NCBI RefSeq assembly: GCF_001984155.1
Contig: NZ_MTQO01000044.1
Span: 1-64,000, forward strand
Origin: Actinosynnema sp. ALI-1.44
Lineage (GTDB): Bacteria; Actinomycetota; Actinomycetes; Mycobacteriales; Pseudonocardiaceae
Reading direction: 5' to 3'
Length of the DNA: 64,000 nucleotides
The position numbers and the translations under genes are program-made. Within the stretch, counting starts at the first letter, position 1, and each line of letters begins with the position of its first letter. The notes beneath the pieces were generated by a model. The model did not search any database. It was not told where the DNA came from and saw only the letters and a list, made by a program, of their open reading frames with translations. This document shows, in pieces, positions 2,828-48,847 of the stretch.

Positions 2828-2956
2828 CGGTTCACGAAGCCATAACTCCTCCTCATAAATCTCGAACCACAAGGACATTTACTGTCCAACAAGGTGACGG
2901 TTATGCCCCGTCTGGCGGTGTCGACGTAGTGGTTGCGGTGCGTAACTTCGGGGTCT

Positions 2957-3385
2957 GTGCGAGTCATCCTGCCTGCCCCCAGTATCCGCTTCCGGCGGTT
3001 GCGGGCATTGCTTCTCGCCTTGAGCGCATTCGCCTCCCTGTATCTCACGGTATGCACCGGGGAACACGGAGCACATATCCTATATCCGGGATCGCACGCC
3101 ACTTCTGCGAACACAACCCTCGATTCGGATTCGATCGGCGTCACCGCGGACAACGGCGGGTCGGGTGAATCGCTGGTACACAGCCCGGATGGCGTGGATG
3201 TCCTGCCCCGGGCCGAGAGCGGTTCCGGCATCGCCCTCCTCGCACTCCTGGGCCTGTTCCTGCTCCCGCACGGCGATCGCCTGCTCGGGGGCTGTCAGCG
3301 GCCGGCCTGGCGAAGGCGTCGCCCGCCGATGAGAGCGGAGCACGGACGCGCGTTCCTGTTGACGGTCTGCGTCGCGCGGACCTGA
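2957..3385 (+). CDS. Hypothetical small membrane protein
   Basis: About 142 aa from a GTG start; a TTG start at 2933 is also possible. A basic N-terminus (RFRRLR) precedes a hydrophobic helix of about 18 residues. A hydrophilic linker with GEHGAH follows, then a second helix around GIALLALLGLFLLPHG and a basic tail. This looks like a two-helix membrane protein with an extracytoplasmic loop. I recognise no family. It stands alone between the glycosidase terminator and the metallophore operon; the flanking spacers (180 and 216 bases) carry no other gene. The spacer before it holds a short inverted repeat, GGACA-N5-TGTCC, at 2873-2887. The long reverse-strand frame across it is a shadow of the next operon. 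Confidence 0.45.
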   Translation: MRVILPAPSIRFRRLRALLLALSAFASLYLTVCTGEHGAHILYPGSHATSANTTLDSDSIGVTADNGGSGESLVHSPDGVDVLPRAESGSGIALLALLGLFLLPHGDRLLGGCQRPAWRRRRPPMRAEHGRAFLLTVCVART

Positions 3386-3526: not shown

Positions 3527-3545
3527 CCACTCCACTGTGGAGTGG
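3527..3545. promoter_or_regulatory. Perfect 19-bp palindrome upstream of the metallophore operon
   Basis: CCACTCCAC-T-GTGGAGTGG is a perfect inverted repeat around one central base, centred 66 bases before the first GTG of the operon. Its size and placement fit an operator. It does not match the usual actinobacterial Zur, IdeR/DmdR or Fur box consensus, so the cognate regulator is unknown. A simple hairpin is the alternative. Confidence 0.45.
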
Positions 3546-3601: not shown

Positions 3602-4585
3602 GTGAATTCCGGCCCTGCACTGCACATCCTCACCCGCAAAGACCTGCACGACCTCGAACTCGCACCGCAGGAGGCCATCACGATGGTCGAGGACGGCTAC
3701 CTGGCTTTCGCGGCCGGGCGGTCTCAGAATCCCGCCAAACTGATGGTGCCGATGCCCGACCCCGCGCGCGACTCGGTCGCGTACTCCATGCTCGGCTACG
3801 ACGGCTCGCTCGAGCAGGCGGCGTTCAAGACGAGCTACCGGCAAGGCAGCACCACCGCCGAGAAGTACTACACGACCATCACCCTGTACGACGACACCAC
3901 CGGCGCGCCGTTCGCGCTCCTGGACTGCCATCGCGTCGGCGCCACGCGCACACCCGCCAGCACCGCGCTGCTGGCCCGGACTTGCGCCAGGCCGGGCGCA
4001 CGCTCGGTGTTGATGGTCGGCACTGGCGCACAGGGGATCCGCACGTTGCCCTACTTGCTCACCGCGCTGCCGGGGCTGGAGCGTCTCCGGCTGTTCGGCA
4101 CGCATCCCGACGGCATCCGCGACAGCATCGCGGCGCTGACCGACCAGTTCCCGGACCGTGAGGTGGAACTGGTCGACGACGTCGAGGCCGCGGCCGCCGA
4201 GTCGGACATCGTGGTCGCGGCGTCCGGCCGCGCGGCGCACCCGAAGATCCGCCTCGGCTGGCTGCCGCCGGGTGGGCTGCTGATCTCCGTGGCCAGCAAG
4301 GGTGTCCAGGAAGGAACCCTCGCACAGGCCGACTACACCGTGGCCACCAGCGCGGCGCAGGTCGAAGTCACCGGACGGCGGATGGCGGGCACGGACGGCG
4401 TGTTCCGCATCGACGCCGAACTGCCCGACATCCTCGCGGGCCGTGTCCCCGGCCGCCGCACGGCCGAGGACCGGGTGTTCGCCTTCAGCAGCGGTATGAT
4501 CATCACCGACATCCCGGTGGCACACGCCCTCGCCACCCGCGCCATCGCGGCGGGCCGTGGACGCGAGGTGACCCTGTGGTCGTGA
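3602..4585 (+). CDS. sbnB: SbnB-like N-(amino-carboxyethyl)-amino acid dehydrogenase (ornithine cyclodeaminase family)
   Basis: 327 aa from the GTG at 3602, chosen because an AGAAAGG ribosome site lies 10-11 bases upstream; an earlier in-frame ATG at 3542 lacks one. The ornithine cyclodeaminase/mu-crystallin fold is clear, with the NAD-binding loop VGTGAQG near residue 140, and lysines in KLMVP and FKTSYR where substrate contacts lie. In staphyloferrin B synthesis, SbnB oxidatively splits N-(1-amino-1-carboxyl-2-ethyl)-glutamate to 2,3-diaminopropionate and 2-oxoglutarate (family knowledge). Here, with an SbnH-like and an SbnA-like gene but no condensing synthetase, it may instead work in the N-alkylating direction with oxaloacetate in an EDDS-type route (inference). 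First gene of a four-gene coupled operon. Confidence 0.85.
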   Translation: MNSGPALHILTRKDLHDLELAPQEAITMVEDGYLAFAAGRSQNPAKLMVPMPDPARDSVAYSMLGYDGSLEQAAFKTSYRQGSTTAEKYYTTITLYDDTTGAPFALLDCHRVGATRTPASTALLARTCARPGARSVLMVGTGAQGIRTLPYLLTALPGLERLRLFGTHPDGIRDSIAALTDQFPDREVELVDDVEAAAAESDIVVAASGRAAHPKIRLGWLPPGGLLISVASKGVQEGTLAQADYTVATSAAQVEVTGRRMAGTDGVFRIDAELPDILAGRVPGRRTAEDRVFAFSSGMIITDIPVAHALATRAIAAGRGREVTLWS

Positions 4586-5937
4586 CCACAACGCTGTCGA
4601 CGCCGCTGCCCGCGCTCGAGCGTCCCTGGGCACCTCGGCTGCGTGGCACACCGATGCTGTGGGAGATCGCTCGCGCCGTCGGCGGTGGACCGTTCCATGT
4701 GATCCACCCGGCGACCTTCGCGGAGAACCTGGTCGGTATGGCCGACGCACTGGCCGCGGCGAACACCCCTGGTGTCGTGTACTACGGCAAGAAGGCCAAC
4801 AAGGCGTCGGCGTGGCTGCGCGAGTGCACCCATCCCGGGACCGGGGTCGATGTGGCGAGTGTGCCCGAGTTGGTGCACGCCCTCGGCAACGGCGTACGGG
4901 GTGAGGCGATCGGGGTGACCGGCGCCGCGAAGTCCGACGGCCTGCTGTGGCTGGCGCTGCGACACCGCTCCCTGTTGGCGGTGGACGCGGCCGACGAACT
5001 GGAACGCGTGGTGGGCCAAGCCCGCCGCCTCGGTGTCGGGGCCGACGTGCTGTTGCGCGTCCGGCCGCCGACAGCGCCGACGAGCCGGTTCGGCTTCTCC
5101 CCCGACGAGTTGACCGCGGCGGTCAGCCGATGTGCCGAACTCCGCGACGCGATCGCGCTGCGCGGTTTTTCGTTCCACCTCGACGGATACGACCCGGTAC
5201 CCCGTGCCGAGCTCGCCGCGCACCTGATCGAGCTGTGCCAGCAGGCCCGCGCTCTGGGCCACCCCGCGTCGAAGATCAACATCGGCGGTGGGATCGCCGT
5301 GTCCTATGTGGCCGACGAGGACTGGCGGCGCTTCAAGGACAATAAGGACGACACCTGGTTCCACAGTGGTCGCCATCCACAGCGGACGTATCCGTATCAC
5401 CAGTCCCCTACCGGCGCCGCGATGGTGACCGCGATCCTGCGGCATGATGTCGGCGGCGCGCCATTGGCCAGCCGACTGCGCGACACCGGGATCGAGTTGT
5501 TGCTCGAACCAGGCAGGGCGCTGCTGGACGGCGCCGGGTTCTCGGTGTTCCCGGTCCAGGGCTGCAAGGACAGCGGGGACCACTTGATCACCACTGTCGC
5601 CGGGCTGAGCATGAGCCTGTCCGAACAGTGGAAGGGCAGCGAGTTCCTGCCCGACCCGGTTCTGGTGCGGCCGGGCGGACCGCGGGACGGCGACGGGCCG
5701 GTCCGGACCGCCGTCGCGGGGTCCAGTTGCCTGGAGTACGACGTGTTGACCTGGCGCACCGTGGAGCTGCCCGCCCGCCCCAGGCCGGGGGATCTGCTCG
5801 TCTACCCCAACACGGCGGGCTACCAGATGGACAAGAACGAGAGTGGTTTCCACCAGCTGCCGTTGCCGCCCAAAGTGGTGGTCGACGGCGATCGCTGGCA
5901 CCTCGACGCCGACTACCTGATCCAGGAGATCCCATGA
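4576..5937 (+). CDS. SbnH-like PLP-dependent decarboxylase (alanine racemase/DAP decarboxylase fold)
   Basis: 453 aa, overlapping the previous gene by 10 bases. GTG at 4576 has a GAGGTGA site at good spacing; GTG at 4582 would form a GTGA overlap. Group IV decarboxylase features are present: PLP lysine in YYGKKAN (about K73), HLDGY, the glycine-rich KINIGGGI, EPGRALLDGAG and the C-terminal SSCLEYD. SbnH decarboxylates a citryl-diaminopropionate intermediate, leaving an ethylenediamine unit (known of the family). In this operon the same chemistry would remove the serine-derived carboxylate to leave the ethylenediamine bridge of an EDDS-like chelator (inference). Ordinary DAP or ornithine decarboxylase activity is the alternative, but the context argues against it. 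Confidence 0.82.
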   Translation: MVVTTTLSTPLPALERPWAPRLRGTPMLWEIARAVGGGPFHVIHPATFAENLVGMADALAAANTPGVVYYGKKANKASAWLRECTHPGTGVDVASVPELVHALGNGVRGEAIGVTGAAKSDGLLWLALRHRSLLAVDAADELERVVGQARRLGVGADVLLRVRPPTAPTSRFGFSPDELTAAVSRCAELRDAIALRGFSFHLDGYDPVPRAELAAHLIELCQQARALGHPASKINIGGGIAVSYVADEDWRRFKDNKDDTWFHSGRHPQRTYPYHQSPTGAAMVTAILRHDVGGAPLASRLRDTGIELLLEPGRALLDGAGFSVFPVQGCKDSGDHLITTVAGLSMSLSEQWKGSEFLPDPVLVRPGGPRDGDGPVRTAVAGSSCLEYDVLTWRTVELPARPRPGDLLVYPNTAGYQMDKNESGFHQLPLPPKVVVDGDRWHLDADYLIQEIP

Positions 5938-6980
5938 CCATCGTCCAGCGCGCCTCGGACCTGATCGGGGACACTCCGCTGCTCGAACTCGCGCACACCG
6001 GGACCGGTACCCGCCTGTTGCTCAAGCTCGAGCAGATGAACCCGACCGGCTCATGCAAAGTGCGGATGGCCCGGCAGATGATCATCGAGGCTGAGCGCGA
6101 CGGCAGGCTGAAGCCGGGTGGGCACATCGTGGAGCCCACGTCCGGCAACACCGGATGTGGCCTGGCGTTGGTCGCGTTGGAGCGCGGCTACCGGTTCACC
6201 GCCGTCGTCGACCGGCACGCGGCCCGTGAGAAGCTGCGCATGCTGTCGGCCATGGGCGTGCAACTCGTGTTCGTCGACTGCCCTTCCGACGGCGGCCCCA
6301 GTTCCGTGCGCAGACGCGAAGTCGCGGCCCGGCTCGCGGCCGAACTGGGCGCCTATCACCCCGACCAGCACAACAACCCCGGCAACGCGAACGGATACGA
6401 CGACCTGGCGGCGGAACTGCTGCGGCAGTTGGACTCCGTCGACGTCCTCGTCGCGGCGATCGGCACGGGCGGCTCGCTCTGCGGCACGGTCCGCGGGTTG
6501 CGGGCGGCGGGCGCACGGACGCGCTCGGTGGCGGTCGAGCCGGTCGGGTCGATCATCTTCGGCGGACCGCCCGGCGTCTACCACCAGACCGGCGCGGGCA
6601 GCCCGGCCGGGTTCCCCATTGGCTCCAATGTGGACCGTGCGCTGGTCGACGACGCCCACCTGGTCTCGGACGCCGACGCGTTCGCGGGCGCCCGTGTCGT
6701 GGCGCGCCGGACCGGAATGCTGGTCGGCGGGACGACCGGCGGCGCGATCCACGTCGCGCTGCGCCGGTTGTTCGCGTACCCACCTGGAAGCACTGTCGTG
6801 GTGCTGTGCAACGACGCCGGGGAGAAATACCTGGACTCGGTGTACGACGACAGCTGGTTGCGCGACCGCGAAGTGCTCGACGAACTGGCCCAACGCCGGG
6901 TGGAGCGGTGGTTCAACACGTACGCCGCTTCGGTTCGGATCGCGGCCGACGCGAGGCGACCCGCGGCGGTGGGTGCGTGA
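5934..6980 (+). CDS. sbnA: SbnA-like PLP synthase (cysteine synthase family)
   Basis: 348 aa, with an ATGA overlap with the decarboxylase and an AGGAG site inside that gene's end. Fold-type II PLP enzyme: IGDTPLLEL, PLP lysine K42 in NPTGSCKVRMA, phosphate-binding EPTSGNTG near residue 67 and GTGGS near 180. In the siderophore pathway SbnA condenses O-phospho-L-serine with glutamate to form the SbnB substrate. A cysteine synthase role is less likely because the gene is locked between SbnB-like, SbnH-like and exporter genes. In an EDDS-type route the amine donor would be aspartate (inference). It ends with a GTGA overlap into the exporter. Confidence 0.85.
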   Translation: MTIVQRASDLIGDTPLLELAHTGTGTRLLLKLEQMNPTGSCKVRMARQMIIEAERDGRLKPGGHIVEPTSGNTGCGLALVALERGYRFTAVVDRHAAREKLRMLSAMGVQLVFVDCPSDGGPSSVRRREVAARLAAELGAYHPDQHNNPGNANGYDDLAAELLRQLDSVDVLVAAIGTGGSLCGTVRGLRAAGARTRSVAVEPVGSIIFGGPPGVYHQTGAGSPAGFPIGSNVDRALVDDAHLVSDADAFAGARVVARRTGMLVGGTTGGAIHVALRRLFAYPPGSTVVVLCNDAGEKYLDSVYDDSWLRDREVLDELAQRRVERWFNTYAASVRIAADARRPAAVGA

Positions 6981-8389
6981 GCCGGTCGACCGGTGGATAC
7001 CCCGCGATCGTCGCGCTGGCCGCGCCGATCGCGGGGATCCAGCTCGCCCAGGTGGCACTGACCAGCGTCGACCTGGCCATGCTCGGGCTGCTGGGGGTGG
7101 CGGCGGTGGCGGCGGGAGGACTGGCGCTCCTGCTGTACAACCAGGTTCGCACCATGTGCGTCGGCATGGTCACCGGCGTCGGAAACCTGGTGGCCACAGC
7201 GGCGGGAGCAGGCGAACAGCGAACCGGCACAGACCAGCCCGACGACCAGGCGAGAGACGAGATCCGGGCGCTGGTGCGCTCGGCGCTCCTCGTGGCGACA
7301 GCGGCGGCGGCCGTGGGCGCGGCGGTCCTGTGTGGACTGGCGCTGGCCCTGCCGCTGCTGGGTCAACGGCCGCAGATAGCCGCGCTGTCGCGTGGGATGA
7401 TGTTCGCGCTGGCGGGTGGGCTGTTCCCGATGGTGTGGCTCAACGTGCTCCGGCAGTTCGCGGTCGGGATGCGCCGCCCCGGCTCGCTGCTCGCGGTGAC
7501 GTTGGTGTCGATCGCCGTGAACGCGGCCTGCAACGCCGCGTTCATCTACGGCTGGGCGGGTTTGCCGCAACTGGGTGTCGCAGGGGTGGGCTTGTCCACG
7601 ACAGTGGTCCAGTTCTTCACGCTGGCGGCGTTCGCCTCCACCATCCGCCGGGATCCCCACTTGCGGCCCATGGTGTCGCTCGCCGCGTGGCGAGCCGACC
7701 CCGTGATAGTCCGGCGCATCGTGCGGCACGGCACACCGATCTGCTTCACCTACGGATCGGAGGCCGCGATCACGTCGATCGCGACCCTGCTGATGGGCGC
7801 GTTCGGACCGGCGATGCTCGCGGCCTCCAACGTGGCCAACCAGCTCGCGTACATCGTGTACCAGTGCAACATCGGCCTGTCACAGGGTTCGTCGATCCTG
7901 GTCAGCCGTGCGGTCGGCCGGTCGGAGCCCGAGTTGGCCTCGACCATCGCGCGACGGGCCCTGACGTTGTCGTGGACGTTCATGGCCGTGGTGAGCCTGG
8001 GCTACGTGTTCGCGCCCCTGGCGATGTTGTGGCCGTTCCTGCATGGCGAGACGGACGCGGTGGTGCTGGGGACCGCGTCGACGTTGCTGTTGTTCGCTGT
8101 CGCGCAGCAGTACAGCAAGGGTACTCAGAACATCCTGGTCGGGTTGTTGCGTGGACTCGGCGACACCGCCTCGGGCTTGCGGTGCACGCTGATCGGGTAT
8201 TGGGCTGTTGGCGTTCCGACCATGGCGGTGTGCGCTTACGTGTTCGGTTGGGGTGGGTGGGGTGTGTGGACGGGGTTGTGCATGGGGTTCGCGTCAACCG
8301 CGGTCCTGCTCGCTCGCCGATTCCGGTCCAGACTGCGGATCCCGGCACCGTTGTCGGGACTCACCTTCGACCGAAAGGGTTGGGAATAA
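6977..8389 (+). CDS. MATE-family efflux transporter
   Basis: 470 aa from GTG 6977 (GTGA overlap). About twelve hydrophobic segments start with PAIVALAAPIAGIQLAQVAL, and an acidic loop near residues 75-95 is a typical MATE layout. MATE proteins export organic molecules by H+ or Na+ antiport. As the last gene of the operon it is the obvious exporter of the product, which suggests secretion and extracellular metal capture. Its 3' end overlaps the convergent NACHT gene by 29 bases, so the two transcripts are antisense at their ends. No importer or binding protein for a returning complex is found in the window. Confidence 0.87.
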   Translation: MSRSTGGYPAIVALAAPIAGIQLAQVALTSVDLAMLGLLGVAAVAAGGLALLLYNQVRTMCVGMVTGVGNLVATAAGAGEQRTGTDQPDDQARDEIRALVRSALLVATAAAAVGAAVLCGLALALPLLGQRPQIAALSRGMMFALAGGLFPMVWLNVLRQFAVGMRRPGSLLAVTLVSIAVNAACNAAFIYGWAGLPQLGVAGVGLSTTVVQFFTLAAFASTIRRDPHLRPMVSLAAWRADPVIVRRIVRHGTPICFTYGSEAAITSIATLLMGAFGPAMLAASNVANQLAYIVYQCNIGLSQGSSILVSRAVGRSEPELASTIARRALTLSWTFMAVVSLGYVFAPLAMLWPFLHGETDAVVLGTASTLLLFAVAQQYSKGTQNILVGLLRGLGDTASGLRCTLIGYWAVGVPTMAVCAYVFGWGGWGVWTGLCMGFASTAVLLARRFRSRLRIPAPLSGLTFDRKGWE

Positions 8390-11300
8390 CAATCTTTCCG
8401 CTACGAGATTCTTTCCATGCGAGCTGAGTATCTTCCGGCAAGCTGTAGGCGGCAGTGTTCCGAAGAACAGAAGCGAAACGACGAGGCTGCGAGCTATCGA
8501 CAATGATACGTTCGAGCCGAGGAAGATCCCACAGCGGCGACAGATCCCTGATCTGGGTGAACGAAATGTCAACTTCCCGCAGGTTCGCAAGCCGGGCCAG
8601 CGCCGAGATATCGATCAGAGCAGTCCTGGACACGTTCAACATGACAAGCTTGGACAAACTCGCCAGGCCGTCAACACGTGTGACAGTCGTTCCTGAGAGA
8701 TTGAGGCTGACCAGCCGCTTGAGGTCCGCCAGCGGCGCAGGATCGGAAACCGCGCAGTCGACCACGGCGACGTCGTACAACGTCCTCGCCCAAAGGCCGA
8801 TGTGGTCGATGTTACGAAGGGAGGTGGTTTCGGCGATGTGCAGCGCTCGCAGCGACGGGGCAAAGGCTAGGGGAGCAAGCGACTCCAGTCCGTCCAATCG
8901 AGCGACTACCACTCGCTCAAGTGAGGCGCACGCTTGAATCGAGTAAATGTCGGCGGCCGTCACACCACGCCCTATGTTGAGCATTGTCAGATTGGGCAGA
9001 CGATCGATCACGTTGAGATTTTCGGCGTTGGCCACGGACACATACAGTTGCGCAAGGTTTGCCAAGTGGCCAATGTGCCCGAAATCCACCGTACCCGGGG
9101 GCGCCGCATAGTCGTGCACCACGGACAACAGGCGGATAGAGTCGGGGAGGCCCCTCAGGTCGACGTCCGACTCCAGACTCCAGTTGACATACACAGATTT
9201 CAGACCGTCGAAACGACGGAGAGAGCTTATCCTTTCCTGGTCGTTCTCGATACTGACCGCATCGAGGCCAGACCCGTTCAGCACCTGCACTACATATTCT
9301 TCCTGATCGAACCCACGCCAGTTCCTGATCAGCTCCTTCCGCACCGCGCTCCGCGTATCCGTGCGGTACTTCGCGAGCAATGCAAGCGCCTCGGGCAAAC
9401 CGGTCTCGGCGATGGCACGCAGCGTCGCGACTGTTTCCTTGGCCGTCCGGGGTTTGGCGTCCGCCAGGAGATCGAGGACGAACGGCCCGGCGGAAGCGAA
9501 CTGCTTGGCAGCGGTCAGCGACTTCGGCGGAAGCAGCTTTCGTGCTCGCTCCTGGATGTCGGCGCGGAGCTCCACGTCGAGCTCCGGAGCTGTTTCCAGA
9601 CTGGCCAGAGCAAGCAGCTCCAGCACGCTCTGATACTCGGGCTGGACGTCCGCACGCGCGAGGAGCCCCGAGAGCAACTCCTTGCGCTGCGGGCGGGAAG
9701 CACACCCCACCGACATCACGACGACTTCCTGCCACTGGTCCAGATGCGCGTTGGCAACAACAGTCCCCACGTCATCGGCGTCAGTCATGGCCGCCAGAGC
9801 GGCCAAGTACTCCTGGAATGTCCGGTGGATGAAGTCGACACGACCCTCGACCGGTTCCCGCAGAAGACCCGACCGTTCGAGCAAGTGGCTGTAGACCTCC
9901 GTCCTCGCCTGGACCTGGGGCATGTTCTCGAGACGTTTGGCGAGCAGGTCCTTGGCACGGGTCACCCCGACGTCACTCTTCCCGTTGCGGATCAGCCAGT
10001 ACGCGAGGTCCCCGAGCAGCAGCGTCTTCTCCCGGCGGTTGAGACCGTCGTGCAGGTGCACCTTCCGCTCCGCGTCACGGCGGTCGAGAAGCATCTGCAG
10101 TGCCACGTCGTACAGCTCGATGCGGTTGCTGGGCATCGCCGAGCGGCGATCCTTGTACAGCGCGCAGAGCAGGGCGCAGAGAAGCGGGTAACCAGCCAGT
10201 TTCCGAAGGTGGTTGCGGGTGTTGAGCTGGTCTGTCAGGCCTTCCTGGTACGCGTCGATCTCGGCTTTGGCCTGGGTGTCCGCTGCGAGCGAGCGCATGG
10301 CGTCGTGCCAGCGTTCGATGAACACCCTGACGTCGCGCGGCGTCATGGGCTGCAGTTCCATCACCTTGAAGGCGTCCTCTTGCAGCCATGACGGCGGCGC
10401 GCCGCCAGGACGTGAGGTGATGACGAACTTCGCCCGGGGAAAGGAGCCGGTCAGATCGCGGAGCCACGATCGGACCGCGTCACGCTGAATCGCGTACACC
10501 TCGTCGACGCCGTCGATCAGGACGACCGCGGTACCGTCGCGCAGGCACGAGTGGACCCAGCCCTTGGGCATCTCGTCGGCGATGTGGCGGCCGATCTCGT
10601 CGAGGAACTGTTCGGGCGCGGGCAGGTTGCCGTGTGTATAACGGCGCAGGGGCAGGAAGAAGGGGACGGTTCCGTTCCACGCCGACAGCCGCTCGGGGAA
10701 GTCACAGAGCGCGCTGCGGACGGCGATCCAGTGCAGCAACGTCGTTTTGCCCAGACCGGCTTCACCACGGATGAACAACCGGTTGCTCATCGCGAGGAGG
10801 TCCTCGACGCGAAACTCCTCGAAGATCGAGTCCGTGCCTTCGGTGGCCGCCGTCAAACCGATGTAGGCCACCGACAGCGGGTACTTGCGGCTCGCGTCGG
10901 ACAACGTGACCCCGTACATCTCGACCTGGTCGAGCTTCCGGGCCACCAGCTGGCGGTAGTCGTAGTCGAAGCCCGTCGAGCGGTCACGTTGTGGGAGACG
11001 AGCGAGGACTTCCTTGATGCCGTCGAGGATCTCCCTTTCACGGCGCAGGATCTCAGTCAAGGCGTCCGGTGAGAACCGCGGCAGGCTGCGGGCGATCTCG
11101 ATGACGTAGCCGCAACATTCGCGCAGCAGGAGGTCGTAGAGATCACGGCCTTCCCGGGACAGGTGACGGGAGTCGCCGCTCAACGAACGAGCGAGGTGCC
11201 GGGCGTCCAGGTCCGCGGCGAAGAGATCGTCGCCCTTCAGTGGCGAATTCTCGAAAGCGGCCCGGACGGCGTCAAGCGCGGCCTCCTGCTCGTTCGACGG

Positions 11301-11531
11301 CAAACCGCGAAACTCGGTCGTCAGGATGGGTTCGACGCGGCTCGCGACCTCGTCGGCGAAGTTCGCCATCAGCCGTTCGAGTTTGCGCTTGTCGCGGTGG
11401 CTGACCAGGCGGTCGGAGATGACGTCGACCGCGCTCGCACTCACCTCCGCAGCGATCTTCTGATCACCGAGCCACAGTTTCGCCGCCGCACGAACCGCCG
11501 CCGTTCCCAGCCGGATGAGCGCAATTTCCAC
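8361..11531 (-). CDS. NACHT-LRR STAND ATPase (bacterial NLR-like, probable anti-phage defence)
   Basis: 1056 aa from GTG 11531. Residues 1-225 are helical with no recognised enzyme motif, resembling the NACHT N-terminal helical (NNH) domains of actinobacterial NLR-like proteins. NACHT ATPase: Walker A GEAGLGKTT at 256-264, Walker B VVLIDGVDEV at about 336-345, followed by ITSRPGG. Residues about 600-740 are helical. Residues about 760-1030 carry leucine-rich repeats such as LVMLNVSRTALIDISALARL. Bacterial NACHT proteins of this design protect against phage by sensing viral proteins (published family knowledge). No separate effector gene is attached, so any killing activity must lie in the N-terminal domain (inference). 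Single gene, convergent with the exporter. Confidence 0.85.
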   Translation of the reverse strand: MEIALIRLGTAAVRAAAKLWLGDQKIAAEVSASAVDVISDRLVSHRDKRKLERLMANFADEVASRVEPILTTEFRGLPSNEQEAALDAVRAAFENSPLKGDDLFAADLDARHLARSLSGDSRHLSREGRDLYDLLLRECCGYVIEIARSLPRFSPDALTEILRREREILDGIKEVLARLPQRDRSTGFDYDYRQLVARKLDQVEMYGVTLSDASRKYPLSVAYIGLTAATEGTDSIFEEFRVEDLLAMSNRLFIRGEAGLGKTTLLHWIAVRSALCDFPERLSAWNGTVPFFLPLRRYTHGNLPAPEQFLDEIGRHIADEMPKGWVHSCLRDGTAVVLIDGVDEVYAIQRDAVRSWLRDLTGSFPRAKFVITSRPGGAPPSWLQEDAFKVMELQPMTPRDVRVFIERWHDAMRSLAADTQAKAEIDAYQEGLTDQLNTRNHLRKLAGYPLLCALLCALYKDRRSAMPSNRIELYDVALQMLLDRRDAERKVHLHDGLNRREKTLLLGDLAYWLIRNGKSDVGVTRAKDLLAKRLENMPQVQARTEVYSHLLERSGLLREPVEGRVDFIHRTFQEYLAALAAMTDADDVGTVVANAHLDQWQEVVVMSVGCASRPQRKELLSGLLARADVQPEYQSVLELLALASLETAPELDVELRADIQERARKLLPPKSLTAAKQFASAGPFVLDLLADAKPRTAKETVATLRAIAETGLPEALALLAKYRTDTRSAVRKELIRNWRGFDQEEYVVQVLNGSGLDAVSIENDQERISSLRRFDGLKSVYVNWSLESDVDLRGLPDSIRLLSVVHDYAAPPGTVDFGHIGHLANLAQLYVSVANAENLNVIDRLPNLTMLNIGRGVTAADIYSIQACASLERVVVARLDGLESLAPLAFAPSLRALHIAETTSLRNIDHIGLWARTLYDVAVVDCAVSDPAPLADLKRLVSLNLSGTTVTRVDGLASLSKLVMLNVSRTALIDISALARLANLREVDISFTQIRDLSPLWDLPRLERIIVDSSQPRRFASVLRNTAAYSLPEDTQLAWKESRSGKIVIPNPFGRR

Positions 11532-42818: not shown

Positions 42819-44393
42819 TCACACAACGCGAAACACGAGCAGAGCGATGTCGTCCTCCTTGTTCCGGCCGTACGTGTGCAGCAACCTGTCGCAGAGAGCC
42901 TCGATGTCCTCGTCGTGGGTCATCGACGCGCGCAGTCGCTCCATGTCGTCACCCAGTGGCACGCCTCGGCGTTCGACGAGCCCGTCGGTCATCAGCATCA
43001 CGGTGGTGCCCGCGGGCAAGGACATCTCGACGGCGGCAGGCCGGTCGACCCCGATCCCGAGCAGCGGCCCGTGGGATTCGACGTACCGCGCTCCGTCCTG
43101 GTCGATCAGCATCGGCGGGATGTGACCGGCGTTGGCCATCGTCACCGTTCGCGCCACCGGGTCGACCAGCAGCAGGCACAACGTCGTGTAACCGGCGGGG
43201 TGGAAACGGCGCAGCATCGCGTCGAGCCGTTCGATGATCTCGGCGGGTCCGTGGCCTTCGATCGCGTAGGCGCGCAGGGCGTGGCGCACCTCCCCCATGA
43301 TCGCCGCCGCTTCGATCGAGTGCCCGTTGACGTCGCCGATCGCGACCAGCAGCTTTCCGTCGAGGTTCGTGACCTCGTAGAAGTCGCCGCCGATCTCCGC
43401 GGTCATCGAGGCGGGCAGGTAGCGGACCGCGACCGGCAACCGCGGGTGGTGCGGGACATCCCCGGGCAGCAGGCTGCGTTGCAGGGTGAGCGCCAGGCTG
43501 TGTTCCTCTGTGTACGCCCGCAGGCCGTCCGCGGCGAGGGCGCTGGCCTGGCCGAGTTGCAGCAGCAGGTTGCGATCTTCCTTGGAGGCGACGGCTGTCG
43601 TCGGCACCGCGACGCAGATGGGCGGGTTGTCGGGTTTGGTCCGCGTCATGATCACGGTCATGTCGTCGGGCCAGTCCTCGGACCGCGTCATGGTGGTGAT
43701 CGACGAGCCCACCCGGTTGCCGAGGCGCGCGGCGGCGAGGTGGTCGAGCAGCGCGGCCGGCTCGGTCCGGATGGCGACCGGCTGGCCGGGCTCGGTGATG
43801 ACCGCTCGGCGTATCTCCCGTTCCGACGCGGCGATCAGGACCGTGGCCGCGCTGTCGAACATCGTCGACGCGCCGCCTGCGACCGCCTTGATCAGCATCG
43901 GGAAGCTCTGAGCCTGGTAGATGGTCAGGCTGGCCTCGGTCAACTGGTTGAGCCGGTGGGCCAGCCGCTCGGCCGCGACGCGGGCCCGGTAGTAGCGCAA
44001 CGCCGATTCGACGGTGGCCAGCAACACGTTCGGGTCGACCGGCTCGGTCAGGTAGCCGTCGGCGCCCTGAGTGAGCCCGTGTGCGCGGTCGTCGGGCTCG
44101 ACGAACGTCGCGGAGATGTGGATGACCGGCAGCGCGGCCGTGGCCGGGTCCGCCTTGATCCGCCCGCAGACCTCGAAGCCGCTGATGTCCGGCAGCCGCA
44201 CGTCGAGCAGGACGAGGTCGAACGGCTGGTGGCGCAGGACCGACAGGGCACGCGCGCCGGTGTCGACCTCCGTCACCTCGTGACCGCTGCGGCGCAGCCA
44301 CCTGGCGGTGATGTAACGGCTGGCCTCGCTGTCGTCGACCACCAGGATGCGTGCGGGCACGGCAGGCTCGTGCACGAACTCCAGTCCGCTCAT
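42819..44393 (-). CDS. Response regulator-GAF-like-PP2C (SpoIIE type) phosphatase
   Basis: 524 aa, ATGA overlap with the hybrid kinase. Receiver domain at residues 15-130 (ILVVDDSEASRYI, phospho-Asp in LVLLDVRLPD), a GAF-like sensor region at 150-300, and an RsbU/SpoIIE PP2C domain at 310-520 (AEIGGDFYEV, AIGDVNGHS, TDGLVERRG). Output end of the operon: it would dephosphorylate STAS proteins when its receiver is phosphorylated by the neighbouring kinase (inference). Confidence 0.88.
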   Translation of the reverse strand: MSGLEFVHEPAVPARILVVDDSEASRYITARWLRRSGHEVTEVDTGARALSVLRHQPFDLVLLDVRLPDISGFEVCGRIKADPATAALPVIHISATFVEPDDRAHGLTQGADGYLTEPVDPNVLLATVESALRYYRARVAAERLAHRLNQLTEASLTIYQAQSFPMLIKAVAGGASTMFDSAATVLIAASEREIRRAVITEPGQPVAIRTEPAALLDHLAAARLGNRVGSSITTMTRSEDWPDDMTVIMTRTKPDNPPICVAVPTTAVASKEDRNLLLQLGQASALAADGLRAYTEEHSLALTLQRSLLPGDVPHHPRLPVAVRYLPASMTAEIGGDFYEVTNLDGKLLVAIGDVNGHSIEAAAIMGEVRHALRAYAIEGHGPAEIIERLDAMLRRFHPAGYTTLCLLLVDPVARTVTMANAGHIPPMLIDQDGARYVESHGPLLGIGVDRPAAVEMSLPAGTTVMLMTDGLVERRGVPLGDDMERLRASMTHDEDIEALCDRLLHTYGRNKEDDIALLVFRVV

Positions 44394-46123
44394 GCTCCTC
44401 CTCGTCCCCGGGCATGTCGCAGACCGTCGAGGACAGCGTCGACGGACAGCCGTGATTTGTGCAGCAACGCAACACCCGTGCCCAGCGCGGCGTGGTCGAT
44501 TTCCTCGGAGTCGAGCGAGGTCACCACGATGACCGGGACACGGCCAAGCACGGGGTCGGGGCGCATCGCGGCGAGGCAGTCGTACCCGTTGAGCTTGGGC
44601 ATGGTCAGGTCGAGGAAGATCACGTCCGGCGGGTCCGACGCCGCGACGAGCAACGCCGTCTCGCCATCCGTCACCTCACGGACATCGGTCGCCACGTCGG
44701 CGATCATGCGCCGGAACACCGCGCGGAACGCGTCGTCGTCGTCGACCAGCAGCACTCGGCCCAGGTGCGCGGGTTTGTCGTGGACCGGCAGCACGAGCAC
44801 GACTTCGGTGCCCTCGCCCGGTGCGCTGTGCAGCCGCAGGTCGCCGCCGAGCAGTTCGGCGAGTCTCCGCGCGTAGGGCAGCCCGAGACCCGTACCGCTG
44901 ACCCTGGTCTGCATCGGGTTGGGAACCTGGTGGAACTCCTCGAACACGAGCTTGTGTTCCTCGGGCGGGATGCCGATCCCGGTGTCGGTCACGCGGAACT
45001 CCCACTGCCCGTCCTCGCCGACGTGCGCGGCGAGTCGCACTTCACCGTGCTGGGTGAACTTCACGCCGTTGGACAAGAGGTTGCGCAGGATGCGGATGAG
45101 CATGGTCTCGTCGGTGACCAGTACCGAGTCCGCGGGTGGGTCCTCGATCACGAGTTCGACGTCACCGGCGGGCACGATCGGCCTGAGCGTGCCGCGCAGC
45201 TGCGCGAACACCGCGCGGACGTCCACGGTTCCCAGCTGTGGGCGCAGTCTGCCGGATTCCGCCTTCGCCGAGTCCAGCAGCTCGTTGACCAGGGCAAGCA
45301 GGGTCTCGCCCGAATCACTGACCATCCTGGTCTGCTGGCGCTGCTCCGGCGTCAACGGGTCGGCGGCCGGGTCCAGCAGGAGACGGGCGAGCCCGATCAC
45401 CGAGTTGATCGGGGTCCGCAGCTCGTGACTGACGTTGGCCCAGAACCGCGTTCGCGCCTCGATGGCGTCCTTGAGCTGCCTGCTCTTGTCGTCCAGTTCG
45501 GCGTACAGGGCGACCACACCTCGGTTGGTCTCCTCCAGCTCCTCGGTGATCTCGCCGTACAGGGCCATCACGCCGTGGTTGGTCTCCTCGAGCTCCTCGT
45601 TGAGCCGGACGAGTTCGTTCTGCTTGGCCTCAAGGCTTTCCAGCGCCGAGAGGAGTTCCTCGTTCTGCGCGCGCAGCTCGTCCAGCGCGCTGGACGGGGT
45701 CGATTCGGCGAGTGTGGTGCGCGCCAGCGCGAGCGTGGAACGGCTGGGCACCCTGACCGCCGACGGCAGGCGCTTCACCAGCACGATGACCCGATCCGCC
45801 TCAGTGTGCTCGGCTTTCACCTCGGTCATCAGACGAGTCGCCGACGCCCAACCGACCTGTCCACGGGGGACGTCACGACCGCCGTGCCAGGCGAACTGGA
45901 TCCGCAGCACCGGGGACGGCCGGGTGATCACGTCGAACGACACCGACACCCAGTTCTCACCGTCGAGGACGTCACGCGCCAAGTCGCTCAACGCGGTGGC
46001 GACCCGGGTCTGGTCCTGGGTCTCCATGCCGATCACCCGAGCGACTTCCCTGCCCCGTTGACGCAGCAGGAACACGTCCGACTCGCTGCGCACGCTCACC
46101 TTGAGCAGGTTCTCGATCGACAT
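44390..46123 (-). CDS. Hybrid sensor histidine kinase with degenerate RsbT-like N-terminal domain
   Basis: 577 aa. Residues 5-100 resemble RsbT (VRSESDVFLLRQRGREVARV, QTRVATALSDLARDVL), but the catalytic N-box Glu and Asn are Asp47 and Asp51. A coiled coil follows at 145-225 with two near copies of EELEETN. Then HisKA with His233 in FWANVSHELRTP, HATPase (DTGIGIPPEE, GTGLGLPYA) and a receiver with Asp505 in VIFLDLTMPK. No membrane helix, so it is cytosolic. One base separates it from the upstream phosphatase gene. It may hook two-component signalling to the stressosome. Confidence 0.86.
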   Translation of the reverse strand: MSIENLLKVSVRSESDVFLLRQRGREVARVIGMETQDQTRVATALSDLARDVLDGENWVSVSFDVITRPSPVLRIQFAWHGGRDVPRGQVGWASATRLMTEVKAEHTEADRVIVLVKRLPSAVRVPSRSTLALARTTLAESTPSSALDELRAQNEELLSALESLEAKQNELVRLNEELEETNHGVMALYGEITEELEETNRGVVALYAELDDKSRQLKDAIEARTRFWANVSHELRTPINSVIGLARLLLDPAADPLTPEQRQQTRMVSDSGETLLALVNELLDSAKAESGRLRPQLGTVDVRAVFAQLRGTLRPIVPAGDVELVIEDPPADSVLVTDETMLIRILRNLLSNGVKFTQHGEVRLAAHVGEDGQWEFRVTDTGIGIPPEEHKLVFEEFHQVPNPMQTRVSGTGLGLPYARRLAELLGGDLRLHSAPGEGTEVVLVLPVHDKPAHLGRVLLVDDDDAFRAVFRRMIADVATDVREVTDGETALLVAASDPPDVIFLDLTMPKLNGYDCLAAMRPDPVLGRVPVIVVTSLDSEEIDHAALGTGVALLHKSRLSVDAVLDGLRHARGRGGA

Positions 46124-46124
46124 G

Positions 46125-47168
46125 TCAGCCGCCGGGCAGTTTCGCGACCAGCACCGAGGCGTCGTCCCTCCGTGTGCCCGCGTCGCGCAGCAGCGTCATC
46201 GCGATAGGCAGCGGACGGCCGGCGAACAGGCGTTCCCTGCCCTGTGCCGTCCACCGCTCGGTCAGTCCGTCGGAGTGCATGACGACCGCCGCGTCGGCGG
46301 GCACGGGGTAGTCGAACGACCGGATTTTGCGGGCCTGGTGCCCGGCGATCCCCGGCAGGCAGACCATGCCGCGTTTCTGCCCCGCGGCCACCACGGCGCC
46401 GGAGATGTTGCCGATCCCGGTGAACCGGACCTGGCCGGCTCCCTCGTCCAGCTGCGCCACCGCGACCGCGCCTCCTCGGGTACCCGCGAGCGCACGGTGG
46501 ATCTGCCCGACGAGGACTTCCGAATCGCTCGACTCGGATTCGCAGAACACCCTCACCGCGAGCTGCGACGCCGATGCTGCCAGCGGCCCATGCCCGGCGC
46601 CATCGCAGAGCATCAGCAACGTGCGGCCGTCGACACGGCGTACGGCATAGGAGTCGCCGCAGATCTCCTCACCGTTGATCGGCCGTGTCACACCGGCGGA
46701 GACGTCACCAGTGGTGTCGATGCGCGTGCGACGCGGGTGGAAACGCACGGCGAGCACGGTCCCGGCGGACAGTTCGGAGTACACCTCGTGCGAATCGGCC
46801 AGCCGCAACACGGCGCCCAGCCCGATGCCGAGCGTCCCGCTCGTGGAGTGACCGTCGCGGAACACCTTGTCCATGTCACCGATGCCAGGGCCGCGATCGA
46901 CCGCGACGACCTCCACCACCGCTTCGTCGACGGTGCGGACCGAGCGCACCACCATGACGCCCTCGGTGGCGTGTTTGACCAGGTTGGTGCCCAGTTCGGT
47001 GACCGCGACCTCGATCTCGGCGACCCGTGTCGGCGAGCAGCCCAGCTTGTCGGCCAACACGCCCGCGACTCGTCTGGCGGCGCCGACCGACGACGTCTCC
47101 TCGACCCGGATCCACGCCACGTCCTGGGTCGCTGCCCGGCAGAGGGCGGCTTGGCTCACCGCGTCCAT
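46125..47168 (-). CDS. RsbT-RsbX fusion: anti-sigma-type ATPase plus PP2C phosphatase
   Basis: 347 aa. Residues 15-145 are an RsbT-type GHKL kinase domain (AEIEVAVTELGTNLVKHATE, DRGPGIGD, TLGIGLGAVLRLAD). Residues 160-345 are an RsbX/SpoIIE-type PP2C phosphatase (GEEICGDSYAV, LCDGAGHGPLA, MHSDGLTERW, RRDDASVLVAK). In Bacillus these are separate proteins that drive and reset the stressosome. Only 4 bases separate it from rsbT. Confidence 0.86.
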   Translation of the reverse strand: MDAVSQAALCRAATQDVAWIRVEETSSVGAARRVAGVLADKLGCSPTRVAEIEVAVTELGTNLVKHATEGVMVVRSVRTVDEAVVEVVAVDRGPGIGDMDKVFRDGHSTSGTLGIGLGAVLRLADSHEVYSELSAGTVLAVRFHPRRTRIDTTGDVSAGVTRPINGEEICGDSYAVRRVDGRTLLMLCDGAGHGPLAASASQLAVRVFCESESSDSEVLVGQIHRALAGTRGGAVAVAQLDEGAGQVRFTGIGNISGAVVAAGQKRGMVCLPGIAGHQARKIRSFDYPVPADAAVVMHSDGLTERWTAQGRERLFAGRPLPIAMTLLRDAGTRRDDASVLVAKLPGG

Positions 47169-47172
47169 CTAC

Positions 47173-47586
47173 TCACCGGCCCCACTTCGTCACGGTCACC
47201 GTGGTGCCCCGGCCGACTTCCGTGGTCAGGTTGAACTCGTCCACCAGGCGGCGAGCACCGCTGAGGCCGAGACCCAGTCCTTTGCCGCTCGTCCAGCCGT
47301 CGGTGAACGCCAGCTCGACATCGGCGATACCCGGCCCCTCGTCGATGAAACTCGCCCGCACGCCTCGCCTGCGCGTGTCGGCGACAATCTCGACGTCCGC
47401 GACGCCACCACCGCCGTAGGTGAGGGTGTTGCGGGCCAGTTCGCTCGTAGCGGTGACCAGTTTCGTCTGGTCGACCAACGACAACTTGGCCTGCTGGGCG
47501 TAGGACCGCACGAGCTGCCGGACACGCACGACGTCGTCGTCACGCCGGATCGGTAGTTCCTTGCGCTCTCCGGCCGGTGACGTCAC
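47173..47586 (-). CDS. rsbT: RsbT serine/threonine kinase (stressosome switch protein)
   Basis: 137 aa from GTG 47586 (GTGA overlap with rsbS). GHKL fold with intact N-box SELARN (Glu49, Asn53), IDEGPGI and SGKGLGLGLSGARRL. RsbT is held by the stressosome, phosphorylates RsbS and RsbR on stress, then leaves to activate a downstream phosphatase (family knowledge). A longer frame upstream is a shadow in rsbS/rsbR. Confidence 0.88.
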   Translation of the reverse strand: MTSPAGERKELPIRRDDDVVRVRQLVRSYAQQAKLSLVDQTKLVTATSELARNTLTYGGGGVADVEIVADTRRRGVRASFIDEGPGIADVELAFTDGWTSGKGLGLGLSGARRLVDEFNLTTEVGRGTTVTVTKWGR

Positions 47587-47996
47587 GAGAAAGCCTGGAC
47601 GGGTTCGTCGTCTTCGTCGACCTCGATCCGCACTTCCCGGTCGGCGCCGAGCCGCCGCAGAACGGCGAGGCCCTTCTCCAGGTCGAGCGCGGTGCGGACC
47701 TCGCCGAGCGTCAGCCCCAGCTCGACGAGCGTGATCGCGACCGCGGGGCGCATCCCGACCACGACCGTGTCGGCGTCGAACAGCCGCGAGATCGACGCGA
47801 TGGTGGCGAACATCCGGCCGATGAACGAGTCGACGATCTCGACCGCCGAGATGTCGATGACCACGCCGTGCGCACCGGTCGAGCTGATCCGCTCGGCCAG
47901 GTCCTCCTGCAACGCCACCACCGACTGGTCCTCGAGGTCGACCTGGATCGACACCAGCAGGACGTCCCCGATCTTGAGAATCGGTACGCGCTCCAT
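47583..47996 (-). CDS. rsbS: RsbS STAS-domain stressosome scaffold
   Basis: 137 aa. The single STAS domain starts with PILKIGDVLLVSIQVDLED and has the conserved phosphorylation serine, Ser57 in VDSFIGRMFATI (Ser59 in Bacillus). The C-terminal acidic tail (EVRIEVDEDDEPVQ) is an extension. TGATG overlap with rsbR gives tight coupling. Confidence 0.9.
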   Translation of the reverse strand: MERVPILKIGDVLLVSIQVDLEDQSVVALQEDLAERISSTGAHGVVIDISAVEIVDSFIGRMFATIASISRLFDADTVVVGMRPAVAITLVELGLTLGEVRTALDLEKGLAVLRRLGADREVRIEVDEDDEPVQAFS

Positions 47997-48847
47997 CAGA
48001 CAGCCTGGTTTCTGCGCCGCACGACGTCGACACCGGCTCGTCGCAACGCGTGCAACAACGCGTCGGCCAGAGACGCCTTCGTGGTGATGTCACCGAACTC
48101 GATGCCCAGCCCCACGATGGTCTGCGCGATCTGCGGCCGGATGCCGGAGATGGTGCACTCCGCGCCCATCAACCGGGCAGCCATGACCGTTTTGAGCAGG
48201 TGCTGGGCCACCTGGGTGTCCACCGCGAGCACGCCGGTGATGTCGATGATCGCCTGCTCCGCGCCGGACTCGACCAGCGCTTCCAGCAGCTTCTCCATCA
48301 CGACCTGGGTGCGCGCGGAGTCCAAGGTGCCCACCAGCGGCACCGCGAGCACGCCGTCCCACAGCTTGACCACCGGGGTCGTCAGTTCGAGCAGTTGCTC
48401 GGACTGCTCGGTGATGATTTCTTCCCTCGTGCGGGAGTAGAACTCGAACGTCCACAGCCCCAAGTCGTCGAGCAACGACGACAGGGCGATGACCTCACGG
48501 AAGCCGTCGTTGCCGCGCCGCTCGATCAGCTCGAACACCGCGCGCTTGAGCGCGAAGACGCCGACTGCGGTCTCCGACGGCGAGAAACCCAGCCTCGCGC
48601 GGGTCCGGGACAGCTCTTCCAGCAGGACTCGCGCGTCGGCGTACGCGTCGTCCTTGATGTCCCGGCTGCCGGTGCTCAGCGCGTCGACCAGGACCGCGAA
48701 GAACTCGCGCAGCTCGCGGTCCAGCTCGGCCTCGGTCATCCGGCCACGCAGCGACGACGCCGCCAGACCGACCCACCGGCGGATGAGCTCGTCGGCGTCG
48801 CCGCGCAACAAGTCCGCCAGCTGATCGCCTTGTGTCGGGTTCGTCAC
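47996..48847 (-). CDS. rsbR: RsbR-type stressosome sensor (RsbRD N-terminal domain plus STAS)
   Basis: 283 aa from GTG 48847 with GAGGAGG upstream. Residues 1-140 are helical (RsbRD/globin-like sensor shape without an obvious heme His), and residues 155-275 form a STAS domain. Thr174 (VPLVGTLD) and Thr211 (AVDTQVAQ) align with the two RsbR phospho-threonines of Bacillus. First gene of the operon, whose promoter must lie in 48848-48949. Signal unknown. Confidence 0.88.
   Translation of the reverse strand: MTNPTQGDQLADLLRGDADELIRRWVGLAASSLRGRMTEAELDRELREFFAVLVDALSTGSRDIKDDAYADARVLLEELSRTRARLGFSPSETAVGVFALKRAVFELIERRGNDGFREVIALSSLLDDLGLWTFEFYSRTREEIITEQSEQLLELTTPVVKLWDGVLAVPLVGTLDSARTQVVMEKLLEALVESGAEQAIIDITGVLAVDTQVAQHLLKTVMAARLMGAECTISGIRPQIAQTIVGLGIEFGDITTKASLADALLHALRRAGVDVVRRRNQAV

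What the first reader, a model, noticed from the sequence alone, without database searches (positions are those of the whole stretch)
3602..8389. Minimal SbnB-SbnH-SbnA-MATE operon without condensing synthetase: probable EDDS-type zincophore pathway
Four genes overlap end to end (10-base, ATGA and GTGA overlaps). They supply the three diaminopropionate-type enzymes of staphyloferrin B but no IucA/IucC synthetase, NRPS or ligase. A chemically consistent product is an ethylenediamine-bridged aminocarboxylate such as ethylenediamine-disuccinate: O-phosphoserine plus aspartate (SbnA-like), reductive N-alkylation with oxaloacetate (SbnB-like), decarboxylation (SbnH-like) and export (MATE). An Amycolatopsis EDDS operon (aes) with homologous genes is described in the literature as I remember it; I have not checked gene-by-gene identity. 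The step order is my inference.
Basis: partly seen in the sequence, partly recalled or inferred. Interest (0 to 1): 0.78.

Follow-up and report, generated by a model that had tools for sequence, protein, structure and literature searches.

The report
EDDS-type chelator operon with LpqS-like leader
A soil actinomycete carries a four-gene set of the kind that makes and exports the natural metal chelator EDDS, but it lacks the zinc switch of its close relatives and is preceded by a gene resembling a mycobacterial copper-response protein, so it may deal with copper rather than fetch zinc.

Summary
In detail: 3602-8389 holds four overlapping genes (SbnB-like, SbnH-like, SbnA-like, MATE), and no IucA/IucC gene was found in the genome. 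The EDDS-type reading is supported. Nine named Amycolatopsis loci have the same gene order at 77-93% identity; eight of the nine carry a Zur-like box. SbnA and SbnB scores are far below staphyloferrin-B cut-offs. 'Zincophore' is not supported for this copy: no Zur-like or iron-like box and no adjacent importer were seen. A fifth conserved gene (2957-3385) was missed; it is LpqS-like. LpqS belongs to the RicR copper regulon of mycobacteria. Of 89 sequences examined, 11 have an LpqS-like gene just upstream: five in the window's group and six in Mycobacterium, where CsoR-family repressors lie nearby. A quick tree forces at least two separate pairings. In Pseudonocardiaceae, LpqS-like genes often precede a CysK2/SbnA-type enzyme and an MFS exporter. 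Best reading: an EDDS-type chelator operon in an LpqS-led, possibly copper-related circuit. Product, metal and direction are inferred. The window's own LpqS match is weak (12.3 bits, cut-off 35). New variant of a known kind.

The parts
2841..2859 (+). Conserved direct repeat CATAAC-N7-CATAAA upstream of the LpqS-like gene; candidate control site, regulator unknown
   Evidence: Exact once in each of three genomes (G000, G027, G157), each time just upstream of the LpqS-like gene; 5 further one-mismatch sites each in G000 and G027, none in G157; reversed control 0, 0 and 1
2957..3385 (+). LpqS-like small protein, 142 aa, His-containing, C-terminus CVART
   Evidence: 56-58% identical in L026 and L099; NCBIfam LpqS 12.3 bits, E 0.16, cut-off 35; three-member profile finds LpqS-like proteins first among 15,159 ORFs
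3527..3545 (.). Perfect inverted repeat, 9-nt arms, 1-nt centre, between LpqS-like and SbnB-like genes; role unknown
   Evidence: only this copy in the genome at up to 1 mismatch; not conserved in L026 or L099
3602..4585 (+). SbnB-like reductase (OCD/mu-crystallin family); inferred reductive coupling step
   Evidence: PF02423 5.3e-27; TIGR03944 102 bits, cut-off 327
4576..5937 (+). SbnH-like PLP decarboxylase; inferred decarboxylation
   Evidence: PF02784 2.8e-19; conserved in the relatives aligned
5934..6980 (+). SbnA-like PLP beta-replacement enzyme; inferred O-phosphoserine plus aspartate condensation
   Evidence: PF00291 1.2e-61; TIGR03945 239 bits, cut-off 350
6977..8389 (+). MATE-family exporter
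   Evidence: PF01554 4.4e-24

Best explanation
The operon makes and exports an EDDS-type ethylenediamine-bridged aminopolycarboxylate, but it sits in an LpqS-led metal-stress circuit, most likely copper, rather than in the Zur zinc circuit. Inferred chemistry: the SbnA-like enzyme joins O-phosphoserine to the amino group of L-aspartate; the SbnH-like enzyme decarboxylates the serine-derived part to leave an aminoethyl-aspartate; the SbnB-like enzyme reductively couples that amine with oxaloacetate; MATE exports the product, which would hold Cu(II) (or Zn) outside the cell. Shown: the gene set, its order, kinship with Zur-boxed Amycolatopsis operons, absence of recognisable Zur and iron boxes and of an adjacent importer, a conserved LpqS-like gene upstream, and repeated pairing of such genes with this operon. 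Inferred: the product, step order, metal, co-transcription of the LpqS-like gene, and direction (defence rather than uptake).
For: Order and identity with nine named Amycolatopsis loci. Leader of LpqS type upstream in 11 of 89 sequences, disjoint from the three importer-bearing sets. Six of six mycobacterial leaders pass the LpqS cut-off; CsoR-family repressors near six of six, HMA-type or other P-type ATPases near four of six, a multicopper oxidase near two of six; RicR-like palindromes in four of six. At least two separate pairings on the SbnH tree. LpqS-like genes precede a CysK2/SbnA-type enzyme in 18 of 29 Pseudonocardiaceae loci. lpqS and cysK2 are in the RicR copper regulon (PMC10961391, PMC7924339, PMC10470581, passages). 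EDDS is called a natural Cu(II) chelator in PMC12914433 (passages).
Against: The window's LpqS match is weak (12.3 bits, cut-off 35); the LpqS family search finds nothing in G000 at E 0.001; L027 and L028 leaders have no LpqS hit; hhalign probabilities are 39% and 7%. No RicR-type palindrome upstream in 0 of 5 window-group or 0 of 15 other Pseudonocardiaceae leaders. No CsoR, copper ATPase or multicopper oxidase relative in the 64-kb window or the next 20 kb. Clear copper genes in only 2 of 11 fetched Pseudonocardiaceae LpqS regions. A 216-nt gap separates leader and SbnB-like gene, so they may not be co-transcribed. cysK2 of mycobacteria is also zinc-induced (PMC9048740, passages).
Confidence: 0.5

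Rival explanations
1. An ordinary EDDS zincophore operon: zinc control acts through a site not recognised here, and the LpqS-like gene is incidental.
For: Closest relatives by enzyme sequence include Zur-boxed operons. The published EDDS genes are Zur-controlled (PMC9252823, PMC4993170, passages). Other Zur-like sites exist in the genome: 30 at up to 2 mismatches against 9 for the reversed control.
Against: No Zur-like site near the operon, while 8 of 9 close named Amycolatopsis loci have one; the one without is L026, which has the LpqS-like leader.
Confidence: 0.25
2. The enzymes make a related but different aminopolycarboxylate, or free diaminopropionate, rather than EDDS.
For: Substrate specificity cannot be read from sequence here. 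Some relatives use a different, CysK2-like SbnA (L027 and six mycobacterial loci), so products may vary across the family.
Against: 79-93% identity of SbnA-like enzymes among the window and nine named Amycolatopsis loci argues for one substrate pair; no synthetase of the IucA/IucC type that would use free diaminopropionate was found.
Confidence: 0.15
3. A genuine staphyloferrin-B-type diaminopropionate supply with its synthetase elsewhere.
For: Same three enzyme superfamilies.
Against: SbnA and SbnB scores far below equivalog cut-offs, as for the Zur-boxed L100; no IucA/IucC in the genome.
Confidence: 0.03

Closest known systems
[S,S]-EDDS biosynthesis genes of Amycolatopsis japonicum (name aes recalled) / antiSMASH class 'aminopolycarboxylic acid metallophore'
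   Same: Gene order B-H-A-MATE and 88/78/80/82% identity with L100, whose chromosome length I recall as that of A. japonica; 77-93% with nine named Amycolatopsis loci. Class listed in PMC10320115 (passages).
   Different: No Zur-like box upstream; an LpqS-like gene precedes the operon.
lpqS-cysK2-Rv0849 unit of the mycobacterial RicR copper regulon
   Same: LpqS-type gene followed by a PLP beta-replacement enzyme and an exporter; six mycobacterial loci insert the same B-H-MATE genes.
   Different: Window has B, H and an EDDS-type A instead of the CysK2-like enzyme, MATE instead of MFS, weak LpqS score, no RicR-type palindrome.
Staphyloferrin B diaminopropionate genes sbnA, sbnB, sbnH
   Same: Same enzyme superfamilies.
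   Different: Far below SbnA/SbnB equivalog cut-offs; no IucA/IucC gene in the genome.

Membership tests
EDDS-type aminopolycarboxylate operon | Contiguous SbnB-, SbnH-, SbnA-like and MATE genes | tested here: met
EDDS-type aminopolycarboxylate operon | Close identity to Zur-boxed Amycolatopsis operons | tested here: met
   88-89/78-80/80-82/82-84% in B/H/A/M to five named loci
EDDS-type aminopolycarboxylate operon | Product is EDDS | not testable with these tools
   Needs LC-MS
Zur-controlled zincophore operon | Zur box upstream | tested here: not met
   Best 8 of 15 within 500 nt of SbnB; none on the contig at up to 2 mismatches
Zur-controlled zincophore operon | Repression by zinc | not testable with these tools
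   Needs expression data
Staphyloferrin B pathway | SbnA and SbnB equivalog cut-offs | tested here: not met
   239 of 350 and 102 of 327 bits
Staphyloferrin B pathway | IucA/IucC synthetase | tested here: not met
   0 matches in own genome
LpqS-led copper (RicR) unit | LpqS cut-off met by the leader | tested here: not met
   12.3 bits, cut-off 35; L026 22.6. Distant kinship suggested
LpqS-led copper (RicR) unit | RicR/CsoR-type palindrome upstream | tested here: not met
LpqS-led copper (RicR) unit | Leader followed by PLP beta-replacement enzyme and exporter | tested here: met
   B-H-A-MATE follows the leader in the window, L026, L028 and L099
LpqS-led copper (RicR) unit | Induction by copper | not testable with these tools
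   Needs RT-qPCR under copper and zinc

The most novel reading that the evidence does not exclude
EDDS-type synthesis is a portable module plugged into at least three metal circuits (zinc, iron, copper). In the LpqS-led branch, joined at least twice, it makes an exported chelator for copper defence. By extension, the lpqS-cysK2-MFS unit of actinobacteria may itself make and export a small O-phosphoserine-derived aminocarboxylate copper chelator rather than serve only cysteine metabolism.
Probability: 0.28. Interest if true: 0.82.

Novelty: new variant of a known kind. Interest (0 to 1): 0.6.

Why it matters
EDDS is a biodegradable counterpart of EDTA, known in biology as a zinc-repressed product of Amycolatopsis. 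The comparison here suggests that the same module is wired to zinc, to iron, or, with an LpqS-type leader, probably to copper. If true, bacteria use an EDTA-like molecule against copper stress, some strains may make EDDS without zinc repression, and the lpqS-cysK2-exporter unit of the mycobacterial copper response gains a testable chemical role.

Tried and rejected
Rejected: staphyloferrin B membership. The inverted repeat at 3527-3545 as a regulon operator: single copy at up to 1 mismatch, not conserved. A regulon behind the CATAAC-N7-CATAAA element: exact copies only here. Importers: the NikA-like SBP has no ortholog in G000 (36% over part of its length; 5 of 9 genomes searched have any match); the FecB-type SBP matched in 0 of 9 genomes, but that search had no positive control. 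Paper searches: A. japonica chromosome length, 0 papers; aminopolycarboxyl with copper and CsoR, 0 papers, 54 papers hold two of five terms, and of the 40 listed none holds both lpqS or cysK2 and EDDS or aminopolycarboxyl (14 not listed). Rows dropped: the B-H-M tree left out 16 named loci and any locus lacking full stop-free B, H or M, leaving 67 rows without L026; the H tree left out 20 loci and short or stop-containing rows, leaving 68. The LpqS-like leaders were picked by a C-terminal pattern chosen after seeing the first ones; two loci (L077, L091) hold no sequence upstream of the first core gene. It also said that zinc- and iron-type loci do not overlap; one search shows overlaps L089, L097, L050 and L096. 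It was returned once for checking.
Full report
OBSERVATION. Pfam gives OCD/mu-crystallin, Orn_Arg_deC_N, PALP and MatE. The genome (G000, 11.7 Mb, 54 contigs) has no IucA/IucC match; the control rings in 2 of 14 genomes. NRPS and ligase genes were not searched. One gene was missed: a 142-aa ORF at 2957-3385, 56-58% identical in two relatives. The window begins at base 1 of its contig, so little is known upstream.

WHERE IT COMES FROM. In the family sample 23 of 297 genomes (G000 included) hold the SbnH-like protein at E <= 1e-40, among them 2 of the 8 listed genomes of the window's genus. Genus g16 is Amycolatopsis, because locus L002 of G157 has the coordinates of the named A. coloradensis contig. 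The congener G027 has one contig of 11,759,770 bases, which I recall as Kibdelosporangium phytohabitans; that name is recall, not a result.

EDDS-TYPE, NOT STAPHYLOFERRIN. A scan of named genomes gave 73 loci. With the window and 15 regions fetched by place this makes 89 sequences, six of which repeat another. Of the 89, 74 have the order B-H-A-MATE and 15 are variants or incomplete. Nine named Amycolatopsis loci (L026, L029-L035, L038) match the window at 77-93% in all four proteins. Five of them (L029, L030, L032, L033, L035) have a Zur-like box 60-101 nt upstream of SbnB, 12-13 of 15 bases; 2.2% of shuffled upstreams reach 11. Three more (L031, L034, L038) have one at an importer gene upstream. 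The ninth, L026, has none. Two other named species, A. nivea and A. rubida, are more distant (57-67%) and iron-type. L100 (88/78/80/82%, Zur-like box at -60) has the chromosome length that I recall for A. japonica. A. japonicum EDDS production is zinc-inhibited through Zur, and aspartate is named as a precursor (PMC9252823, passages; PMC4993170, passages; PMC6103462, passages). The window's SbnA-like and SbnB-like proteins score 239 (cut-off 350) and 102 (cut-off 327) on the staphyloferrin-B models, those of L100 230 and 96. antiSMASH 7 lists aminopolycarboxylic acid metallophores as a class (PMC10320115, passages), and EDDS-like clusters are reported in Corynebacterium striatum (PMC10486106, passages).

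CIRCUITS. (i) Twenty loci carry an SBP of one cluster; its L038 member is SBP_bac_5 and NikA-like. A Zur-like box of 11 or more of 15 lies around the SBP start in 17 of 20, in 14 of these 17-48 nt upstream. (ii) Seventeen loci carry an SBP of another cluster; its L039 member is Peripla_BP_2. An iron-box-like site of 13 or more of 19 lies within 500 nt of SbnB in 16 of 17 (shuffles 2.3%). Three of the 17 repeat another locus. A DmdR1-linked cluster with MATE is already reported in Nocardia (PMC10920908, passages). (iii) A third SBP cluster is in 13 loci, chiefly proteobacterial. These sets overlap a little: L089 and L097 are in (i) and (ii), L050 in (i) and (iii), L096 in (ii) and (iii). (iv) Eleven loci have an LpqS-like gene ending 196-361 nt upstream of the first core gene: window, L026, L027, L028, L099 and the mycobacterial L075, L079, L080, L082, L085, L087. 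None of them is in sets (i)-(iii). The leaders were recognised by a C-terminal pattern made after seeing the first ones, so this count is descriptive.

THE LPQS-LIKE LEADER. All six mycobacterial leaders pass the LpqS model (68-129 bits, cut-off 35). A CsoR-family gene lies near six of six: one cluster in L075, L079, L082, L085, L087, of which three members were tested by Pfam, and a CsoR-HMA fusion in L080. P-type ATPases lie near four of six, the tested L087 one with an HMA domain, and a multicopper oxidase near two of six. RicR-like palindromes of 9 or more of 10 lie upstream in four of six (shuffles 5.8%). In the window's group the match is weak: L026 22.6 bits (E 1e-4), window 12.3 (E 0.16), L099 10.5, L027 and L028 none; the family search of G000 finds nothing at E 0.001. 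hhalign gives probabilities of 39% and 7%. But a profile of the three window-type proteins alone, run on 15,159 six-frame ORFs, ranks LpqS-like proteins first after its own members: L153 1e-6, L146 9e-5, L028 0.006. That database is enriched, because L136-L167 were fetched with LpqS searches. Members of the wider group match DUF6153.

WHAT LPQS GOES WITH. Of 29 loci fetched by those searches (L139-L167), 18 (17 places) have an SbnA/CysK2-type enzyme beside the LpqS-like gene; in 12 of these (11 places) it is 66-70% identical to the mycobacterial one, and all 12 also have the mycobacterial-type MFS; in 6 it is 37-40% identical. Eleven of 29, mostly weak or partial LpqS matches, have neither enzyme. 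M. tuberculosis has the order lpqS (rv0847), cysK2 (rv0848), permease (rv0849) under RicR control (PMC7924339 and PMC10470581, passages); copper releases RicR from lpqS and other promoters (PMC10961391, passages). That the enzyme called A' here is CysK2 rests on position and family, not on a direct comparison. In the A tree of 94 rows, the 25 A' sequences and L064 form one clade (support 1.0) without the window's enzyme. So six mycobacterial loci and A. anabasis read lpqS-A'-B-H-MATE, while window, L026, L028 and L099 read LpqS-like-B-H-A-MATE. On the SbnH tree of 68 rows the LpqS label needs two changes, and starred branches force two: the mycobacterial group lies with iron-type loci, the window group with zinc-type loci (a quick tree, SH-aLRT only). 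A. coloradensis has both an LpqS-led operon (L026) and a second one (L034) with a Zur-like box beside a shortened importer SBP.

THE WINDOW'S OWN SWITCH. The best Zur-like match upstream of SbnB is 8 of 15 and the best iron-box match 10 of 19; no RicR-type palindrome of 8 or more of 10 lies upstream of the leader. The genome has 30 Zur-like sites at up to 2 mismatches against 9 for the reversed control, none on contig C40. A looser pattern has 4 matches in the window against 3.8 expected, the nearest 253 nt after the operon. The repeat CATAAC-N7-CATAAA at 2841-2859 is exact once in each of three genomes. No relative of the mycobacterial CsoR, copper ATPase, multicopper oxidase or BlaI was found in the window or the next 20 kb (E 1e-6). 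Clear copper genes lie in 2 of 11 fetched Pseudonocardiaceae LpqS regions (L177: CsoR 60%, ATPase 69%, oxidase 49%; L172: ATPase piece 66%).

MECHANISM (inferred). O-phosphoserine plus Asp (SbnA-like), decarboxylation (SbnH-like), reductive coupling with oxaloacetate (SbnB-like; the iminosuccinate reductase model BhcD also matches weakly, 42 bits with a cut-off of 500), export (MATE). One fungal enzyme adds O-phospho-L-serine to L-Asp in aspergillomarasmine synthesis (PMC8319579, passages), a chemical precedent. EDDS is called a natural Cu(II) chelator in PMC12914433 (passages). Exported copper-chelating products that help under copper stress are known as bufferins (PMC12452194, start of abstract in the listing). 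By analogy with RicR, the LpqS branch would act in copper excess; for the window this is inference. Zinc also induces mycobacterial cysK2 (PMC9048740, passages), so a broader metal-stress role is possible.

VERDICT. An EDDS-type operon (about 0.85), probably not a Zur zincophore (about 0.75), perhaps copper-linked (about 0.5). A new variant of a known kind. In one search, 54 papers hold at least two of five terms; none of the 40 listed holds both an LpqS/CysK2 term and an EDDS/aminopolycarboxylate term.

Noticed in passing
window 8361-11531 (-): NACHT NTPase with an NNH1 N-terminal domain and leucine-rich repeats, convergent with the operon; weak PADLOC match PDC-S60 3.7e-9. Possibly a bacterial NLR-like defence protein.
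   Followed up: partly
window 51949-53471 (+): Catalase split over two overlapping ORFs in different frames, profile positions 1-214 and 227-381: a frameshifted gene or an assembly error. Described only.
   Followed up: partly
window 42819-48847 (-): Stressosome-like set: RsbRD_N plus STAS protein, lone STAS protein, hybrid histidine kinase.
   Followed up: partly
L027:7160-12824 (Amycolatopsis anabasis): B, H and MATE are 82-90% identical to the window, but the SbnA-like gene is replaced by a CysK2-like one (35% to the window, 68% to mycobacterial A') placed upstream, behind an LpqS-like gene.
   Followed up: partly
L034 (A. coloradensis, contig_10): Second EDDS-type operon with a shortened importer SBP (74% identical over residues 57-229 of 541) and a Zur-like box, in the genome that also holds the LpqS-led copy L026.
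   Followed up: partly
L059 (Agrobacterium vitis pTi contig): B-H-A relatives on a Ti-plasmid contig; no MATE relative matched there.
   Followed up: no
G000:C49:605873-605887 (L114): One of the two best Zur-like sites of the genome lies between ORFs that read by eye like an MFS exporter and a FecB/FecCD-type importer: possibly a zinc metallophore transport pair.
   Followed up: no
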